Assembly (NCBI RefSeq): GCF_018069865.1
Contig: NZ_JAGQDG010000003.1
Location: 186,001-250,000, forward strand
Origin: Ideonella paludis
Lineage (GTDB): Bacteria; Pseudomonadota; Gammaproteobacteria; Burkholderiales; Burkholderiaceae_C
Direction of reading: 5' to 3'
Length of the DNA stretch: 64,000 nucleotides
The translations under genes were made by a program, and so were the position numbers. Position 1 is the first letter of the stretch; each line of letters begins with the position of its first letter. A model generated the notes under the pieces. That model was not told the DNA's origin and ran no database searches. It saw only the letters and a program-made list of their open reading frames with translations. Positions 37,256 through 59,870 of the stretch are shown one piece after another.

Positions 37256-37404
37256 ATTGAACTCATTAGTCACAAAATAAACCACATAGTATCAGTGCTT
37301 GGCAAGTGCTGCAGAGTGCAGGGCCGGGGATTGCGCCGAAGCCCGCCCGCGCGAGGGCTGGATCGTGTCAACATAGCGGGTTCCACTCCGCCAAAACCCC
37401 TGCT

Positions 37405-40400
37405 ATGTCCTCTGGCCTGATCCGTATCCGTGGTGCTCGTCAGCACAACTTGAAGAACCTGGACCTGGACATCCGCACGGGGGAGATGACCGTGGTCACC
37501 GGGCCCAGCGGCTCGGGCAAGTCCAGCCTGGTGTTCGACACCCTGTATGCCGAAGGCCAGCGCCGCTATGTCGAGACCTTCTCGGCCTATGCCCGGCAGT
37601 TTTTGGACCGCATGGACCGCCCTGCGGTGGACCGCGTGGACGGCGTGCCCCCGGCGATTGCGATTGACCAGACCAACCCGGTGCGCACCAGCCGCTCCAC
37701 CGTGGGCACGATGACGGAGTTGAACGACCACCTCAAGCTCCTCTTCGCCCGGGCCGCTCAACTCTTTGACCAAGACACCGCGCTGCCCGTGCGGCATGAC
37801 ACGCCTGAGACCATTTATGCCGACTTGCAGGCACGGGCGCTCATAGCCAACGACCCACGCTTGATCTTCACCTTTGCGGTGGAGCTGCCCGCCAACACCA
37901 CGGCTGAGCAACTGGAGCAGTGGCTGCAGGCCAGCGGCTTTGCGCGGGTGCAGGCGGAACGCGTCGTCGGCGATAAGAAAGTCCTTGATGTGGTGGCGGA
38001 CCGCTTCCGCCTCGGCAACGCTGAGCGGGTGCGGGTGATGGAGGCCATTGAGCTGGCGCTGAAGCGCGGCCAGGGCCGGCTCACCGTCTATGCCCTCGGT
38101 GAGGGCGATGCCACCGATTTCTGGCGTTATTCCACCGGCCTGCATTGCCCCGAGAGCGACCGCCGTTACGGCGAGCCGCAACCTGCGCTGTTCAGCTTCA
38201 ACTCGGCCTATGGCGCCTGCGAGACCTGCCGTGGCTTTGGCCGGGTGATTGGCGTGGACTTTGGCCTGGTGATCCCCGATGAGCGCAAGACTTTGCGCAA
38301 CGGTGCTATCAAGCCGCTGCAAACCCCGGCGTGGAAGGAATGCCAGGACGACCTGGTGAAGTACGCGGGCGAGGCCGGCATCCCGCGCGACACGCCCTGG
38401 GCCCAGCTCACGGCCGCGCAGCGCGAGTGGGTGCTGGAAGGCTCACCGAACTGGACGGGCAATTGGAACAAGCAGTGGTATGGCGTGCGCCGCTTCTTCG
38501 AGTACCTGGAGAGCAAGGCCTACAAAATGCACATCCGGGTGCTGCTGTCCAAGTACCGCAGCTACACCCCTTGCGGCACCTGCGGCGGGGCACGCCTCAA
38601 GCTCGAAGCCCTGCTGTGGCGCTTGGGCTCTAAAGCCAATGCGGATGCCGTGCTGCCGCCCGAGCAGCGCAAGCTGCCGCTGGGTGCCGCCTGGAGCGCG
38701 GAGCAATTGCAGGCACTGCCAGGCTTGAACCTGCACGACCTGATGCTGCTGCCCATCAGCCGCCTGCGCCGCTTTTTTGATGAATTGACCCTACCGGACG
38801 TCCTGCGCGACGAGGCCCTGAAGTTGTTGTTAGAAGAGGTGCGCACCCGCATCAAGTACCTTTGCGATGTGGGCCTGGGCTATCTGACGCTGGACCGCCA
38901 AAGCCGCACGCTCAGCGGCGGCGAGGTGCAGCGCATCAACCTGACCACGGCGCTGGGCACCTCGCTGGTCAACACCTTGTTTGTGCTGGACGAGCCCAGC
39001 ATTGGCCTGCACCCGCGTGACATGAACCGCATCGTGCAGGCCATGCACCGCCTGCGCGACGCCGGCAACACCCTGGTGGTGGTGGAGCATGACCCTGCCG
39101 TGATGCTGGCCGGCGACCGCCTGATCGACATGGGCCCCGGCCCCGGCGAGAAAGGCGGCCAGATCGTGTTTGACGGCGGCCCCGAAGCCGCCCGCGATGC
39201 CGACACACTGACCGGCGCCTACTTGGGCGCGCGCAAGGTGGTGGGCCTGGGTTTCAAGCGCTTTGTCGATGAGGCCACGCCCAAGCTGATCTTGCAAGGC
39301 GCACGCCAGAACAACTTGCGCAACCTGACCGTGGCCTTCCCGCTGCAGCGGCTGACGGTGGTGACGGGCGTCTCCGGCTCGGGCAAGAGCACCTTGGTGC
39401 AAGACGTGCTGGTGCCGGCGCTGTTCCGCCACTTTGGCCATGCCACGGAGACGCCGGGCACCTTTGACCAACTGCTGGGCGCCGACCATCTGGCCGACGC
39501 GGTGTTTGTGGACCAAAGCCCCATCGGCAAAACGGCCCGGTCCAACCCCGCCAGCTATGTGGGCGCGTTTGACGAGATCCGCAAGCTCTTTGCCGTGGCC
39601 CCGCTGGCACAAGAGCGCAACTACACCGCGGGCATGTTCAGCTTCAATGCGGGCGATGGCCGCTGCCCCACCTGCGGCGGCTCGGGCTTTGAGCATGTGG
39701 AGATGCAGTTCCTCTCTGACGTCTACCTGCGCTGCCCCGATTGCGATGGGCGCCGCTACCGGGCGGAGTTGCTGGAGGTCAAGATCGAGCGTGGTGACAA
39801 GAGTTTGTCCATCGCCGATGTGCTGGACCTGACCGTGTCCGAAGCCGTCAAAGCCTTTGCGGGCGACCGCGAGGTGCTGCGCACCTTGCAGCCGATTGTG
39901 GACGTGGGCCTGGACTATGTGCGGCTGGGCCAGCCTGTGCCCACGCTGTCCGGTGGCGAAGCCCAACGCCTGAAGCTGGCCGGCTTCTTGGCCGAGGCGG
40001 CCGCCTCGCCGCGCCAGGCCGTGGCCAAAAAGGGCGTGCTCTATGTGTTTGACGAGCCCACCACCGGCCTGCACTTTGACGACATCGCCAAGCTGATGCG
40101 CGCCCTGCGCAAGCTTTTGGAAGCCGGCCACTCGCTGCTGGTGATTGAGCACAACCTGGATGTGATCCGCGCAGCCGATTGGCTGATCGACCTGGGGCCG
40201 GAGGGCGGCGATGAGGGCGGCGCGCTGGTGGCCGAGGGCACGCCCGAGGCGATGCGCGAGCACCCCACCTCGCACACCGGCCGGGCGCTGCGCGAATACG
40301 ATGGCGCACTTCGGGCGGCTGAGAAAACCGCCGACGGCGCCTACCTGGGCGCTGTGGTGCGCGAGCGGGCGGTGGCCGACGACGCCATCCGCATCGTCAA

Positions 40401-43056
40401 CGCCCGCGAGCACAACCTCAAAGCGCTGAATGTGGACATTCCGCGCGGCCAGTTCACGGTGGTCACCGGGGTGTCGGGCTCGGGTAAATCAACCTTGGCT
40501 TTTGACATCTTGTTCAACGAGGGCCAGCGCCGCTACTTGGAGAGCTTGAACGCCTACGCTCGCTCCATCGTGCAGCCGGCCGGCCGGCCCGAGGTGGACG
40601 CCGTCTGGGGCATTCCGCCCACGGTGGCGATTGAGCAGCGCCTCTCCCGCGGGGGCCGCAAGAGCACGGTGGCCACCACCACCGAGGTTTGGCATTTCCT
40701 GCGCCTGTTGTGGGTCAAGCTGGGCCTGCAGCATTGCGTGCATGACGGCGCGCCCGTGCGCCCGCAGTCGGTGGAGAGCATTGCGGCGCAGATCCTGCGC
40801 GACCACAGAGGCCAGCACATTGGCTTGCTCGCACCGCTGGTGGTGAACCGCAAGGGCCTCTATACCGACCTGGCCAAATGGGCCAAGGGCAAGGGCTACA
40901 CGCATTTGCGAGTGGATGGCGAGTTCACCCCCGTGGCGCCGTGGCCCAAGTTGGACCGCTTCAAAGAACACACGCTGGAGCTGCCGGTGGGCGACCTGCA
41001 AGTGCGACCCGAGAACGAAGCCGAGCTGCGCCACTTGCTGGCGCTGGCGCTGGATGTGGGCAAGGGCGTGATGCACCTGCTCTCGCCCTTGGACGGCTTG
41101 GCCGGTAAGTTGGCCGCAGGCGCCAGCACCGTAGGCTTGGGCGAGGTCAAGGTCTTCTCCACCAAGCGGGCCTGCCCGCAGTGCGGCACCAGCTACCCCG
41201 AGCTGGACCCGCGCATGTTCAGCTACAACTCCAAGCATGGCTGGTGCGGCACCTGCGTGGGCACCGGCTTGGCGCTGACGCGCGAGCAGCGCAAAGCCTT
41301 TGACGACAGCGTGCGCGACGACGACAACAAGGGCCGGGAGCAGAGCTTTGCCGCCGAGGAGCCCGAGGTCGAAGGCATTGCCGGCGAGCCCTGCCCCGAC
41401 TGCCACGGCGCCCGCCTGAACCCCGCCGCGCGCGGCGTGAGCTTCAACGGCAAAGGCATCCACGAGGTGGCGGCCTGGTCGGTGCAAGAGGCCCGTGCTT
41501 GGGTGGCTTCGCTGCACCTAGAGGGCCGTGATGCAGGCATTGCCCGCGACGTGATCACCGAGATTCAAGGGCGCCTGGAGTTCCTCGAGGAAGTGGGCTT
41601 GAGCTATCTGACGCTGGACCGCGCCGCGCCCACTTTGTCGGGCGGCGAGGCCCAGCGCATCCGTCTGGCCGCTCAGTTGGGCAGCAATTTGCAGGGCGTG
41701 TGCTACGTGCTGGACGAGCCCACCATTGGCCTGCATGCACGCGACAACACCATCTTGCTCAAGGCCTTGCAACGCCTGAGCGACCAGGGCAACACCTTGG
41801 TGGTGGTGGAGCATGACGAAGACACCATCCGCCGGGCGGACCACCTGATCGACATTGGCCCCGGTGCCGGCCGGCGCGGTGGTGAGGTGGTGGCGCAGGG
41901 CAGCCCGGCCGAGGTGGCTGCCAACCCGGCCTCGCTGACGGGCCGCTTTTTGCAGCATCCGCTCAAGCACCCCTTGCACGCGCGCCGTGAGGTGAGCGCT
42001 GAGACCCCTGCCCTGCAACTGCGCGGTGCCCATCTGCACAACCTGCAGCAGGTGAATGTGGACGTGCCGCTGCAGCGCTTGGTGGCGGTGACGGGGGTGT
42101 CGGGCTCGGGCAAGTCCACCTTGGCACGCGACGTGCTGCTGGCCAATGTGGCCGCGCTGGTGGCCGCCAAAGGGCGCAAGCCCGATGAGAGCGCAGCGGG
42201 CTCGGTGCTGCTGAGCGGCTGCCAAGCCTTGAGCGGCTGGGGCACGGTGGACCGCGTGCTGGAAGTGGACCAAACGCCGATTGGCAAAACCCCGCGCTCC
42301 TGCCCCGCCACCTACATCGGCTTTTGGGACACCATTCGCAAGCTCTTCACCGAGACCTTAGAGGCCAAGGCCCGGGGCTACACCGCGGCGCGCTTCTCCT
42401 TCAACACCGGGCAAGGCCGCTGCCCGGCCTGCGAGGGCCAAGGCATGCGCACCATCGAGATGAGCTTTTTGCCCGATGTGAAGGTGCCTTGCGATGTCTG
42501 CCACGGCCAGCGCTTCAATGCCGAGACCCTGGCTGTCACCTGGCGCGGCAAAAGCATTGGCGATGTGCTGAGCATGGAGGTGGACGAAGCAGTGGACTTC
42601 TTCGCCTCCATGCCCACCATTGCCCACCCGCTTCAATTGCTGAAAGACGTGGGCCTGGGTTATCTGACCCTGGGCCAGCCCAGCCCCACGCTGAGCGGCG
42701 GAGAGGCTCAACGCATCAAATTAGTGACCGAGTTGAGCAAGGTGAGGGATGACGTGACGAGGCGCGGCCAAAAGGCACCGCATACGCTCTATGTGCTGGA
42801 CGAACCCACCGTGGGCCTGCACATGGCCGATGTGGAGCGCCTGATCCATGTGCTGCACCGCTTGGTGGATGGCGGCCACAGCGTGGTGGTGATCGAGCAC
42901 GACTTGGACGTCATCGCCGAGGCCGACTGGGTGCTGGACCTGGGGCCGGAAGGCGGCACCGGCGGTGGCCGGGTGGTCTGCGCCGGCACGCCGGAGACCT
43001 TGGTCAAACTGGGCACGCACACGGGCGTGGCCATCCAGCCCGTGCTGGCCCGCTGA
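37405..43056 (+). CDS. uvrA: Double-length UvrA excinuclease subunit
   Basis: A 1883-residue protein, twice the usual UvrA length of about 940. It is made of two UvrA-like halves joined head to tail. Four Walker A motifs are seen near residues 31, 655, 1023 and 1565, and four LSGGE signatures near 502, 848, 1410 and 1762, each followed by DEP. Zinc-finger cysteines occur in both halves (near 753 and 1672, e.g. CPACEG...CDVC). UvrA recognises DNA lesions and loads UvrB. Such long forms exist in several proteobacteria beside a normal uvrA; whether this organism has another copy is not visible here. Start at [19 protein letters not shown]. No ribosome binding site is obvious. Confidence 0.92.
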
Positions 43057-43634: not shown

Positions 43635-46600
43635 TCAGGCCGCCAGCCATACAGCGTCCTCGACGCCCCGCCAGAGATGAACTCTGTCGGCAGCCGAAAA
43701 GCTCAGTAGCTCCTGCGAGCTTTGGCTTTGCGTGGCGCCGGTGTCAAGCTGGGTTGAGGTGTCTGCCTGGCCAAATAGGCTCGTGTCTTGAAGAAGGTCA
43801 TTCAAGGCCAAAGGCTCGACGATCGAGATGCTGACGGCCTTGGAGCGAGCGGACTCGTTGCCCGCGAGGTCGAAATAGCTGATGGCCACCTCGTGCTGTC
43901 CCAAGCTCAGTTCCTGATTCGGTTTGACAGTGCGTCCATCAACGCTCAATTGGGAGGCGACCGGCCCGCCATCAATCCACAGAGCCACAAAGTGGTCTGC
44001 CGGCGGCGATGCAAAGACAAACTCTGGCTGTTTGATGCTGGTGATGCCATCGTCAGACCGGACGCCGTCGTCGTCGATGGCACGAAGTGCAGGCGCGCTA
44101 ACGGGAGCATCAGGTCGGGTGATGTCAATCAGGATCCGCAGGCTCTCCGAGGCCTCTGACAAAGCCCCTGAAGTACTACGGTATCTCACGGCCACGTCGT
44201 GCCAGCCTTCTTGCAATGGGTCGCGAGAAGAAATGTAACTGTCATAGCCTGTGCGGGTGATGGTGGATTCGACTCGCTTGCCGTCAATCAGAAGCTCCGC
44301 AACAGTATCGGGCGAATAAGTGACCTTGAATTCGGGCCACATTTCGTTCGTGATGTCGTCGCTCCAGAAGGTTCTTTCACTGCTTCCGTCTGCGGTGTGG
44401 GCAATCCAAGACTGAGGCCCTCGGTCATCAGAAGCAGTCAGATCTGGTTTCAATGGCGGTAAATCAGGCACCCGTGTGTCGATCGTGACATCCAGGTCGC
44501 CCCGGGCCTTCGGACCGTTGTTGCCTGCCGCATCACTGACGTAGAAATTGAAGGTATGCCGTCCATCGTTGAGTGGGTTCACTGGGGTCAGAGTCCCCTT
44601 TTGCTTGTCCCACAGTGATGCCACGGCCACGCCATCCACCAACAACTGCGCTGACGCATAGTCCCTGGTGTGACCCCAGCCGTTGACGATCAATTCAGGA
44701 TGGAACATTGCGGGCGCGTTGATGCACGTCAGGTTGTCACCCTGATAGCCCAGGTCCGAAGCCGCGTCCAAACGCAGTGGATCAAGGGGGAACTGAACGG
44801 GGTCCTTGGTGTCGATGGTCAGTCGCTGGGAGTAAATCATGGGCATGAAATCATTGCCACTCACGGCACCGACCATGATTTGGTGCTCACCGTCTGACAA
44901 CGGGTTGCTTGCTTGGATCAGACCCGAGGCAGCGTCCCATTGGCTGGCCACAACTTGACCATCGACCATCAAGCTTAGACTGTAGCCTTGGGGCAGTTCC
45001 GGGTGTCCGACAAAGAAGCGAGGTGTACTCACTCGGGTCAGACCGTCGATGTTGCTGATTCCTGAGTCATCGCGATCCAAGAGGTCTAGTCGATCAGGGA
45101 GCCAAGACGCCACGACACCGACCACCGTTGAGCCGGACAGTGTTGATTCCACGCCGTGTTGATTGACCCGAGTCCAAGCGACTTGGTGATCTTGGCAGGC
45201 TTGGTTGGGCAGATTGGAGCCAAATGCTTGGTCCATCTGCACCTGACCCGTCGCGGCGTCGTAGCTGGAGGCCACCAGCTTGCCGTCAACATAGAGGCGG
45301 GCGGTTTCATCGGGCCCTAAGCGACCGATGTCGAACACCGGTCGAGCACTTTGGCCAATGATCAACACGCTGCCCTGGCCGCCATCGTCGAACTCGGGCA
45401 GAAGCGTTGGTGACTGGGTGGGTGGTTCGGCGACAGCATCAATGTAGAGGGTGAGGGTAGGCGAAATGATGACAGGAGCCCCTACCAAATCACGTGGATA
45501 GCCATAGGCAATCTGGCACTCCCCCTCAGGCAGAGGTTGGTCTACCTGGAGAATGCGCTGACTCCTGTCTACCCATGAGAAACCCACCGGCACTCCGTTG
45601 ACGATCAGAGCTAGACCATCCTGAATTGCGGCATCCGCAGGCAGTTGGAGCTTTGGACGCTGGTTGGCAGTTATGCCGTCTTGGTCGGACGAGCCGGTGT
45701 CGCTTATTGCGAGAAGGGCAATAGGATTTGCAGGGCGAGGGTCAATGATGACTTGGCACCAAGCTTCACTAGTCCCACCGCGTAGATCCGTAACGGTGTA
45801 GTTGAATCCGGTGATTGTTCGCTCTACCGTTGTCGTGGGAGCGTAGTAGTCGACCCACAAGCCGTTGAATCCGGCAATGGAAGATCCATTGATTGCCGTT
45901 CCGATTGACGGCCTGCTCACATCCGCAATAACGAAACGATCCTCGTTGACATCGCTATCGTTCTGTAGGACATAGGCTCTTACCGTTTGCCCTGTGTAGA
46001 CGTGAAGCACATCATCTTGGACTGTCGGCGCGGTGTTGGTTGAATCGACGATGCGGATATACACCCTAGCCGAAGCACTGCCACCTTTGCTGTCGCTGAC
46101 GGTGTAGCTGAAGCTGGTTTCGTTGCTGAAAAAAAACGGGCTGGGCGCTGTGAATTGAATCCGTCCGTCGTCCAGTTGGGTGAGATCTCCACTGCCTGAC
46201 ACGCTGCCCAATTCCAGTTTCAGAGGATCACCGTCCGGGTCCATGTCGTTGGCCAGAAGCTGGTCCACCGTTCCGGTGACTGTCGTCCCCGCTTCAATGG
46301 TGATCCACTCATCTTGCACTACCGGCGCTGAGTTGACGGGCGCAGTCACATTGATGATCAGCTTGCCTTCCGTGCGCAGGCCTTGGGCGTTTTCGACGGT
46401 GTAGCGGATGACTTCTTGGCCGACGAAATCCTTGGCGGCCACGTAGGTCAACTGACCTGAAGTGTCGCGGGTCAAGGCGCCATGTTGGGCCTCGCCGATG
46501 CTCACGATCTTGAGGGGGCCATCTAGGGGGTCGACGTCGTTGGCCAGCAAATCGTTCTCGTGGCCGGACACCGGTGTGCCTGCCACCACTGAGACTAGCT

Positions 46601-46913
46601 CGTCCTGAACGACCGGAGCATCGGCTGCGGCAACAATGGTCAAGTGGACCGTGCCCTGGCTCAATTGGCCTCGCTCATCTCGGACGAGGTAGGTGAATTC
46701 GTCGGTGCCGGTGTAGCCTGGCGCTGGGGTGTAGATGAGGATGCCGGCGGGGTCTTGGCTCAAGGTGCCATGAGTGGTTGACCCGATTTGAACTACCTCC
46801 AGCAGACCACCTTCTGGGTCGACGTCATTGGCCAGCAACATGGCCAAGGTGCCGAAGACGGTGGTTCCGGTGATGACGGTCACGTACTCGTCGTTGACAC
46901 GTGGGACGACCAT
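43635..46913 (-). CDS. Large Ig-like repeat protein
   Basis: A 1092-residue protein made almost wholly of beta-sandwich repeats. Residues about 1-375 hold four copies of a cadherin-like unit (VxDExVxVxxGTxVxG...LLANDxDPxxG...YTVxDxxG). The rest holds five to six copies of another Ig-like unit, with DDxGxxxDGIT...VDGxxVAS and LxDGxHxIxxxxxDxAGN features as in large adhesins. No Sec signal peptide, LPXTG or RTX calcium repeats are seen; the C-terminus (SAADRVHLWRGVEDAVWLAA) may be an unrecognised export signal. GC content is visibly lower than in neighbours, suggesting transfer. The ATG at 46913 follows AGGAG by 8 nt; an ATG at 46934 is also possible. Confidence 0.85.
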   Translation of the reverse strand: MVVPRVNDEYVTVITGTTVFGTLAMLLANDVDPEGGLLEVVQIGSTTHGTLSQDPAGILIYTPAPGYTGTDEFTYLVRDERGQLSQGTVHLTIVAAADAPVVQDELVSVVAGTPVSGHENDLLANDVDPLDGPLKIVSIGEAQHGALTRDTSGQLTYVAAKDFVGQEVIRYTVENAQGLRTEGKLIINVTAPVNSAPVVQDEWITIEAGTTVTGTVDQLLANDMDPDGDPLKLELGSVSGSGDLTQLDDGRIQFTAPSPFFFSNETSFSYTVSDSKGGSASARVYIRIVDSTNTAPTVQDDVLHVYTGQTVRAYVLQNDSDVNEDRFVIADVSRPSIGTAINGSSIAGFNGLWVDYYAPTTTVERTITGFNYTVTDLRGGTSEAWCQVIIDPRPANPIALLAISDTGSSDQDGITANQRPKLQLPADAAIQDGLALIVNGVPVGFSWVDRSQRILQVDQPLPEGECQIAYGYPRDLVGAPVIISPTLTLYIDAVAEPPTQSPTLLPEFDDGGQGSVLIIGQSARPVFDIGRLGPDETARLYVDGKLVASSYDAATGQVQMDQAFGSNLPNQACQDHQVAWTRVNQHGVESTLSGSTVVGVVASWLPDRLDLLDRDDSGISNIDGLTRVSTPRFFVGHPELPQGYSLSLMVDGQVVASQWDAASGLIQASNPLSDGEHQIMVGAVSGNDFMPMIYSQRLTIDTKDPVQFPLDPLRLDAASDLGYQGDNLTCINAPAMFHPELIVNGWGHTRDYASAQLLVDGVAVASLWDKQKGTLTPVNPLNDGRHTFNFYVSDAAGNNGPKARGDLDVTIDTRVPDLPPLKPDLTASDDRGPQSWIAHTADGSSERTFWSDDITNEMWPEFKVTYSPDTVAELLIDGKRVESTITRTGYDSYISSRDPLQEGWHDVAVRYRSTSGALSEASESLRILIDITRPDAPVSAPALRAIDDDGVRSDDGITSIKQPEFVFASPPADHFVALWIDGGPVASQLSVDGRTVKPNQELSLGQHEVAISYFDLAGNESARSKAVSISIVEPLALNDLLQDTSLFGQADTSTQLDTGATQSQSSQELLSFSAADRVHLWRGVEDAVWLAA

Positions 46914-46917
46914 GGTT

Positions 46918-46980
46918 CTCTCTCCTGAGTTCATTGTTTTGATCACCTTTTTGAGGTGCAAGAACTCTATCAGGAGAGAG
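46918..46980 (-). promoter_or_regulatory. Structured 5' leader that hides the ribosome binding site of the Ig-repeat gene
   Basis: On the minus strand CTCTCTCCTG (46971-46980) pairs with CAGGAGAGAG (46918-46927), which contains the Shine-Dalgarno AGGAG. AGTTC/GAACT (46962-46966 with 46928-46932) extends the stem past a 4-nt bulge. An inner hairpin CACCT-CAAAA-AGGTG (46944-46958) covers the AAGGTGA that would serve the alternative ATG at 46934. Both possible ribosome binding sites are thus base-paired. No T-run follows, so it is not a terminator. Confidence 0.6.
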
Positions 46981-47045
46981 TGGCTATCCAAATGTCAAGA
47001 AGGTGGCATCCCCTCAATGAAGTCGAACGAATGGCTCAAGTTCAT

Positions 47046-47642
47046 TCAGCGACTCCGTTGCCGCTTCAGCCGCCACCCCAGCAGCACCGCCACCAGTGCG
47101 GCATACACCGCCACCTCAGCAAAGTCGTTTTTGCCGGCGCGCATCCAGAAGAAGTGCAGCAGGCCCAAGAGGATGATGGCGTAGCTGAGTTGGTGCAGGC
47201 GTTGCCAAGCGCGGCCGCCCAGGGCCTTCATGGCGGAGTTGAAGGAGGTGGCGGCCAGGGGCAGCAGCATCAACCAAGCCAAGGTGCCGACCAGGATGAA
47301 GGGGCGTTTGACCACGTCTTGCCACAGTGCGGCGAGGCTCAGCCCTTGGTCCAGCCAGGCATAGGCCAGCCAGTGCAGGGTGGCGTAGAGGAAGGCGGCC
47401 ACGCCCACATTGCGCCGAAAGCGCGCCAGGGCATGCCAGCCGGTCCAGTGGCGCACCGGGGTGATGGCCAGGGTCAGCACCAAGAGGCGCAAGGTCCAGT
47501 CGCCCAGGGCACGGATCAGGGCCTCGGCGGGGTTGGCACCCAAGGTGTTTTGAAAGGCGCCCCAGACCAAGCTGGCCAGGGGGGCGCTGAGCGCGAGCCA
47601 CAGCACGGGCTTGGCCAAGGGGTGGAGCAGGAGCTTGTTCAT
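47046..47642 (-). CDS. msrQ: Heme-binding membrane subunit MsrQ of methionine sulfoxide reductase
   Basis: MsrQ passes electrons from the respiratory chain to the periplasmic reductase MsrP. The 198-residue protein has about six transmembrane helices, with conserved heme-ligand histidines in RHWTGWHALARFRRNVG, LHWLAY and RLHQLSY. Start at MNKLLLHPLAKPV was chosen; the longer frame reads through the 3' flank of msrP. It lies 82 nt after msrP, forming the msrPQ pair that repairs oxidised methionine in envelope proteins. Confidence 0.94.
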   Translation of the reverse strand: MNKLLLHPLAKPVLWLALSAPLASLVWGAFQNTLGANPAEALIRALGDWTLRLLVLTLAITPVRHWTGWHALARFRRNVGVAAFLYATLHWLAYAWLDQGLSLAALWQDVVKRPFILVGTLAWLMLLPLAATSFNSAMKALGGRAWQRLHQLSYAIILLGLLHFFWMRAGKNDFAEVAVYAALVAVLLGWRLKRQRSR

Positions 47643-47724
47643 GGAAGGGAGCGCCGCACCGCGGCGGGGGGCTGCGGGTGCAGCCCCAGAGGGCGGCACC
47701 TGCAAGGACCTCGGGCTGGACATG

Positions 47725-48717
47725 TCAGTAGAACTTCTTCAAATCCATGCCGGCATAAAGCTGGCCGACTTGGGGCTCGTAGCCGTTGAACATCAGGGTC
47801 GGGCGCTTCTTGGCGAACAGGCCGTCTTCGCCAATGCGGCGCTCTGAGGCTTGGCTCCAGCGCGGGTGGTCCACGGCCGGGTTGACGTTGGAGAAGAAGC
47901 CGTACTCTTGGGCCGCGGCGCGCTCCCAACTGCTGACGGGTTGCTTCTCCACCAGGCGGATCTTGACGATGGACTTGGCGCTCTTGAAGCCGTATTTCCA
48001 AGGCACCACCAAGCGCACCGGGGCGCCGTTTTGGTTGGGCAGCACTTCGCCGTACAGGCCAAAGGCCAGCAAGGTCAGGGGATGCAGGGCTTCATCGAGG
48101 CGCAGGCCTTCGGTGTAGGGCCAGTCCAATACGCTGGAGCGGATGCCGGGCATCTGGGCTTTATCGGCCAAGGTGAAGAACTGCACGTACTTGGCATTGC
48201 CGGTGGGCTCGACCTTCTTCATCAGCTCGGCCAGTGACCAGCCCACCCAAGGAATGACCATGGACCAGCCTTCGACGCAGCGCATGCGGTAGATGCGCTC
48301 TTCCATGGGCGCCAGCTTGAGCAGGGCGTCGAGGTCAAAGGTTTGAGGGCGTTTGCATTCGCCTTCGACCGTCACCGACCAAGGGCGAGGCTTGAGCGTG
48401 TGGGCATTGCGGGCCGGGTCGGCTTTGTCGGTGCCGAACTCGTAGAAATTGTTGTAGCTGGTCACATCGCCATAGGCGGTGGGTTTGTCCATCACCTGGG
48501 CACCGGCCACAGCACTGCGGGTGGCGGGCAAGCGCGCCAACTTGCCGGGGGCGGCGACTTGGGCATGGGCCTCGCGTGCGGCCCAGCCTGCCAAGGCGGT
48601 GCCAGCCGCACCCAGGGCCAGGTGCTGTAGCCAATCCCGGCGGCCATGGTAGACCTCGGGCGGCGTGATCTCAGAGCTTTGGGGGTGGTTGAAGCGGTGC
48701 GATTTCAGCAAGTGCAT
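47725..48717 (-). CDS. msrP: Periplasmic methionine sulfoxide reductase MsrP (molybdopterin subunit)
   Basis: Reduces protein-bound methionine sulfoxide in the periplasm. The protein of 330 residues has a Tat signal peptide ([20 protein letters not shown]) needed for export of the folded molybdoenzyme. The sulfite-oxidase fold shows the molybdenum ligand Cys147 in [11 protein letters not shown] and the [14 protein letters not shown] region. It forms an operon with msrQ downstream. Start at [10 protein letters not shown]. Confidence 0.95.
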
Positions 48718-48860
48718 GGCAAGGTCCGGTGGAGGCAAAGGTGCTGAGCGTGCGGCAGCAAGCGCTCTATCGACTCAGCGTAACAGTGAGTCGATCCATC
48801 CGGCAAAACCTTACGCGGTTTCGGGCCTTAGCGCCCTTTGGGCGTGCGAGCAGGCGAGGC

Positions 48861-59827: not shown

Positions 59828-59870
59828 AATGCTTGTTAGCACTCCACTCAATCGAGTGCTAACAAGCATT
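59828..59870 (-). promoter_or_regulatory. CIRCE operator for the HrcA repressor
   Basis: TTAGCACTC-N9-GAGTGCTAA at 59836-59862 is a perfect CIRCE element. The repeat extends further, giving arms of 17 bp (AATGCTTGTTAGCACTC and its complement, 59828-59844 and 59854-59870) around a 9-nt centre. It lies about 100 bp upstream of groES and touches the -10 box. Confidence 0.95.

What the first reader, a model, noticed from the sequence alone, without database searches (positions are those of the whole stretch)
46918..46980. Nested hairpins that bury both possible ribosome binding sites of the Ig-repeat gene
A 15-bp bulged stem covers AGGAG for the ATG at 46913, and an inner hairpin covers AAGGTGA for the in-frame ATG at 46934. 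This is what an RNA thermometer, a small-RNA target or a ligand-responsive switch would look like, and could keep a costly large surface protein off until needed.
Basis: partly seen in the sequence, partly recalled or inferred. Interest (0 to 1): 0.6.

Follow-up and report, generated by a model that had tools for sequence, protein, structure and literature searches.

The report
Hairpin hiding an adhesin-like gene's start
A strong RNA hairpin really does cover the translation start of an adhesin-like gene, but it is too stable to be a convincing temperature sensor and occurs only here; it most likely keeps read-through messages from the neighbouring genes silent, or is a chance sequence.

Summary
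The hairpin is real. On the minus strand, 46980-46918 forms a 15-bp stem (9+6 bp, 4-nt bulge) that holds the AGGAG of the ATG at 46913; an inner 5-bp hairpin holds AGGTG before the in-frame ATG at 46934. Only 2 of 20,000 local shuffles contain such a repeat, and in 464 kb of this genome it is the only one lying over a gene start. It is single-copy, absent from the paralogues' leaders, and the gene has no detectable orthologue, so covariation cannot be tested. A thermometer is unlikely: the SD is fully paired, the stem is about -26 kcal/mol, and predicted SD exposure stays at or below 0.004 from 10 to 65 C. An sRNA or ligand switch has no evidence for or against. The model does show dependence on transcript start: long transcripts from msrPQ bury the start codon region (22-27 kcal/mol to open), while transcripts beginning inside the 5' arm free it (about 7), and the best promoter-like match would start there, though that match is not significant. 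This is the layout of phage T4 gene e. I favour read-through silencing (about 0.4), with a non-functional inverted repeat as main rival. Interest is low.

The parts
43635..46913 (-). Gene for a 1092-aa repetitive adhesin-like protein (start ATG 46913; alternative in-frame ATG 46934 gives 1099 aa)
   Evidence: Pfam Big_9, Cadherin_4/5, Big_13; NCBIfam tandem-95 repeat and a weak BapA/Bap/LapF adhesin match below cut-off
46911..46913 (-). Favoured start codon ATG
   Evidence: AGGAG 8 nt upstream; the C11 paralogue and its G004 relative have a similar AGGA...ACCATG. Inferred.
46918..46926 (-). 3' arm of the lower stem, AGGAGAGAG, containing SD AGGAG (46926-46922)
46927..46932 (-). 3' arm of the upper stem, GAACTC
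46932..46934 (-). Alternative in-frame start ATG, at the top of the upper stem
46941..46948 (-). AGGTGATC, 8-nt complement of the 16S rRNA 3' end, possible SD for ATG 46934; first five bases in the inner hairpin
46944..46958 (-). Inner 5-bp hairpin CACCT-CAAAA-AGGTG
46962..46967 (-). 5' arm of the upper stem, GAGTTC
46968..46971 (-). 4-nt bulge GATA (an alternative register shifts the bulge)
46972..46980 (-). 5' arm of the lower stem, CTCTCTCCT, the strand that sequesters AGGAG
46969..46998 (-). Promoter-like match TTGACA (46998-46993), 18 nt, CCTGAT (46974-46969), predicted start about 46962; tentative, weak -10
   Evidence: 14% of shuffles score as well
46995..47045 (-). 16-codon ORF MNLSHSFDFIEGMPPS directly after the msrQ stop, with GGAG 8 nt upstream; coding status unknown
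47046..47723 (-). msrQ, upstream gene and likely source of read-through
   Evidence: NCBIfam MsrQ; no terminator-like site between it and the adhesin-like gene on this strand
47725..48738 (-). msrP
   Evidence: NCBIfam MsrP

Best explanation
The inverted repeat is an RNA element that makes translation of the adhesin-like gene depend on where its mRNA begins. Transcripts that enter from msrPQ, or from any start at or upstream of 46980, carry both arms, fold the AGGAG into a 15-bp stem and are translated poorly. A transcript that begins inside the 5' arm, from a promoter there or by RNA cleavage, lacks that arm and exposes the SD, so the gene is made only from its own start. Shown by computation: the stem, the buried SD, and the sharp change with transcript start. 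Inferred: that read-through occurs, that a promoter or cleavage site lies in the arm, and that this is the element's function.
For: Cost of opening the ATG 46913 region is 22-27 kcal/mol for starts from 47723 to 46980, 11.5 at 46970 and 7.4 at 46962, and SD exposure rises from 0.002 to 0.77; gene starts in this window average 15.6, sd 5.5, in a similar though not identical calculation. The best promoter-like match in the leader has a consensus -35 TTGACA and would start at about 46962, the end of the 5' arm. There is no terminator-like site between msrQ and the gene on this strand, so read-through is plausible. Chance of the repeat in this leader is 2/20,000. The same layout is established for T4 gene e: long transcripts fold over the SD, and late promoters lying in the 5' strand of the stem give translatable mRNA (PMC3014915).
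Against: The promoter match has a poor -10 and is not significant (14% of shuffles score as well). No transcript data. No orthologue of the gene was found, so neither stem nor promoter can be tested for conservation. The paralogues' leaders have no such stem.
Confidence: 0.4

Rival explanations
1. The repeat has no evolved function: a chance or historical inverted repeat in an AT-rich leader of a recently gained gene, which merely lowers translation or is never transcribed because transcription starts downstream.
For: Single copy, absent from paralogues' leaders and from downstream of msrQ in 14 genus relatives. At 2/20,000 per leader, some thousands of leaders would give an expected count of order 0.1-1. 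Fold energy is not unusual for the genome, and other gene starts in the window reach 24-28 kcal/mol opening cost.
Against: Exact placement over the better SD; the only such repeat at a gene start among 391 roughly called genes.
Confidence: 0.33
2. A conditional switch: an sRNA, protein or ligand opens the hairpin of a long leader and turns translation on.
For: Strong sequestration that would need an opener; sRNA opening of a buried transposase RBS is reported for ISPpu9 of Pseudomonas putida (PMC8450116).
Against: No Rfam match, no relatives to compare, no candidate sRNA.
Confidence: 0.17
3. An RNA thermometer.
For: SD is sequestered in a hairpin near the start codon.
Against: Perfect SD pairing, about -26 kcal/mol at 37 C, predicted SD exposure at most 0.004 from 10 to 65 C. 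A perfectly paired ibpA variant did not melt even at 50 C (PMC3669281). Caveat: the model does not show melting of the real ibpA thermometer.
Confidence: 0.04
4. A DNA-level element: the inverted repeat is a protein-binding site at the promoter, and its folding as RNA is incidental.
For: Symmetric arms around an AT-rich spacer, overlapping a promoter-like match.
Against: Arms of 15 bp split by a bulge and about 29 bp apart are unusual for an operator (general knowledge); no second copy in the genome.
Confidence: 0.06

Closest known systems
Phage T4 gene e (lysozyme) and I-TevI leaders (PMC3014915)
   Same: SD held in an RNA stem on long upstream transcripts; promoter-like site in the strand encoding the 5' arm, so that a short transcript frees the SD.
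   Different: In T4 the promoters, transcript ends and 100-fold effect are measured and the layout recurs in related phages; here the promoter is a weak match, nothing is measured, and the gene is a bacterial adhesin-like gene.
Insertion-sequence protection from outside transcripts (IS10, IS50; from general knowledge, not read here)
   Same: Stem forms only on read-through mRNA and hides the translation start.
   Different: No transposase or mobile element was identified at this site.
ROSE-like ibpA RNA thermometers (PMC3669281)
   Same: Hairpin over the SD just before the start codon.
   Different: Thermometers pair the SD imperfectly with non-canonical pairs; this one is fully paired and far more stable.
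ISPpu9 tnp leader opened by Asr9 sRNA (PMC8450116)
   Same: Strong leader structure blocks the RBS.
   Different: No sRNA is known here.

Membership tests
RBS-sequestering hairpin (general kind) | SD paired in a stable structure overlapping the initiation region | tested here: met
   (prediction only)
RBS-sequestering hairpin (general kind) | Conservation or compensatory changes among relatives | not testable with these tools
   no orthologue found; leader DNA has only 22-33-base borderline matches in 300 family genomes
T4 gene e-type read-through control | Stem lost when the transcript starts in the 5' arm | tested here: met
   by folding only
T4 gene e-type read-through control | Promoter within the region encoding the 5' arm | tested here: inconclusive
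   TTGACA-18-CCTGAT, start about 46962; 14% of shuffles score as well
T4 gene e-type read-through control | Upstream transcripts reach the gene | tested here: inconclusive
   co-directional msrPQ with no terminator-like site between; no RNA data
RNA thermometer | Marginal stability, SD released within the growth range | tested here: not met
   exposure at most 0.004 from 10 to 65 C; the model is insensitive for ROSE elements
RNA thermometer | Match to a known thermometer family | tested here: not met
   no Rfam match at gathering; relaxed search gives only chance-level hits
Riboswitch or sRNA target | Known aptamer or a pairing sRNA | tested here: inconclusive
   no Rfam family; no sRNA search was done

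The most novel reading that the evidence does not exclude
A chromosomal bacterial adhesin-like gene uses the T4 gene e trick: its own promoter lies inside the stem that silences read-through mRNA from the msrPQ methionine-sulfoxide repair genes, so transcription of msrPQ does not switch on the surface protein.
Probability: 0.15. Interest if true: 0.45.

Novelty: new member of a known kind. Interest (0 to 1): 0.22.

Why it matters
If true, it would be a bacterial chromosomal example of insulation at the level of translation, where a co-directional neighbour can be transcribed through a costly surface-protein gene without making the protein. The case is simple to test with transcript-end mapping and a reporter.

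Tried and rejected
Repeat family or mobile-element scar: no second copy of the leader, of the full arm-spacer-arm pattern, or of the 3' arm with fewer than 2 mismatches in the genome. Intrinsic terminator of msrQ: no T-run follows on the minus strand. Known RNA family: none. Covariation: no orthologues in 149-249 relatives or in the genome collection, where matches are Ig-repeat cross-hits. Shared leader among paralogues: the C11 gene and a G004 gene share a leader with each other, but without this stem. Thermometer: model and literature speak against it, with an imperfect positive control. ROSE family in relatives: none found, but the control search also found none, so this says nothing; Lambda_thermo absent in this genome. 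The default inverted-repeat finder missed the bulged repeat.

Full report
Observation. The leader on the minus strand reads ...TTGACATTTGGATAGCCACTCTCTCCTGATAGAGTTCTTGCACCTCAAAAAGGTGATCAAAACAATGAACTCAGGAGAGAGAACCATGG. CTCTCTCCT and GAGTTC, separated by a GATA bulge, pair with GAACTC and AGGAGAGAG to give 15 bp spanning 46980-46918, and CACCT-CAAAA-AGGTG forms an inner hairpin.

Chance. The fold has z about -4.3 to -4.8 and ranks in the top 0.4% of 66-nt windows by z-score, though not by energy. A 9+6-bp bulged repeat arises in 2 of 20,000 dinucleotide shuffles of the 145-nt leader; whole-window shuffles contain one in 5 of 60 cases. In 464 kb of this genome (window plus 20 stretches) only three exist, and this is the only one over a gene start. 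So it is locally unlikely by chance, but one such case somewhere in a genome of this size would not be surprising.

Gene and setting. The gene encodes about 1100 residues of bacterial Ig and cadherin-like repeats. It follows msrP and msrQ on the same strand with a 111-132-nt AT-rich gap and no terminator-like site on that strand. It converges with apt. No orthologue was found: relatives match only through the repeats, the C-terminal 105 residues have only weak partial matches in this genome and one genus relative, and the stretch after msrQ in 14 genus relatives holds no recognisable counterpart of the hairpin or the gene. The closest relative by MsrQ (87% identity) has unrelated DNA after msrQ. 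The leader is single-copy.

Which start. AGGAG sits 8 nt before ATG 46913; AGGTGATC, complementary over 8 nt to the 16S 3' end, sits 6 nt before ATG 46934. G+C at third positions is 0.57 over the seven codons in question against 0.66 for the gene, which is too little to decide. The paralogue start context favours 46913. On a long transcript both starts are expensive to open (27 and 23 kcal/mol).

Thermometer. Predicted SD exposure is 0.001 at 10 C and 0.004 at 65 C. As a control, the E. coli K-12 ibpA leader gives 0.22-0.27 between 20 and 50 C: the model does not reproduce the known melting of that thermometer, so it cannot exclude temperature effects by itself, but it places this SD about a hundred times deeper. 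In P. putida ibpA, perfect SD pairing gave a structure incapable of melting (PMC3669281). A thermometer is unlikely.

Transcript start as the switch. Folding transcripts with different 5' ends shows a sharp change: 22-27 kcal/mol to open the ATG 46913 region when the start is at 46980 or upstream, 13.2 at 46975, 11.5 at 46970, 7.4 at 46962. Called gene starts in the window average 15.6. The best promoter-like match, TTGACA-18-CCTGAT, would start at about 46962, and the next distinct ones at 46957 and 46926, all inside the hairpin. The match is not significant: 14% of shuffles score as well. The layout is that of T4 gene e, where long transcripts fold over the SD and late promoters in the 5' strand of the stem yield translated mRNA (PMC3014915). 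I therefore prefer read-through silencing at 0.4, against a functionless repeat at 0.33 and an sRNA, protein or ligand switch at 0.17.

Verdict. RBS-hiding hairpins are a known kind. Without relatives or transcript data the case is modest, and I score it low.

Noticed in passing
46995-47045 (minus strand): A 16-codon ORF (MNLSHSFDFIEGMPPS) starts at the base after the msrQ stop codon, with GGAG 8 nt upstream, and ends about 15 nt before the hairpin.
   Followed up: partly
59828-59870: A long perfect inverted repeat (about 17 bp per arm) in an intergenic region, without a T-run on either strand; among the strongest folds of the window.
   Followed up: no
L102 around 1488 (G000 contig 11 near 959988) and L107 around 1824 (G004 contig 2 near 131824): Two related Ig-repeat genes share a conserved leader of about 90 nt (TAGAATCAAGTTGTAACTTTTGCAAGTGAGCCGGC...GACAGGAAGCACCATG), possibly a regulatory element.
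   Followed up: no
37306-43056 (plus strand): A 1916-aa UvrA-like ORF that looks like a tandem duplication of UvrA in one protein; judged from the translation only.
   Followed up: no
G000 contigs 1, 11, 16, 19, 20, 22 (L101-L106): At least six further large Ig/cadherin-repeat open frames in this genome, about 1100-2800 residues each.
   Followed up: partly
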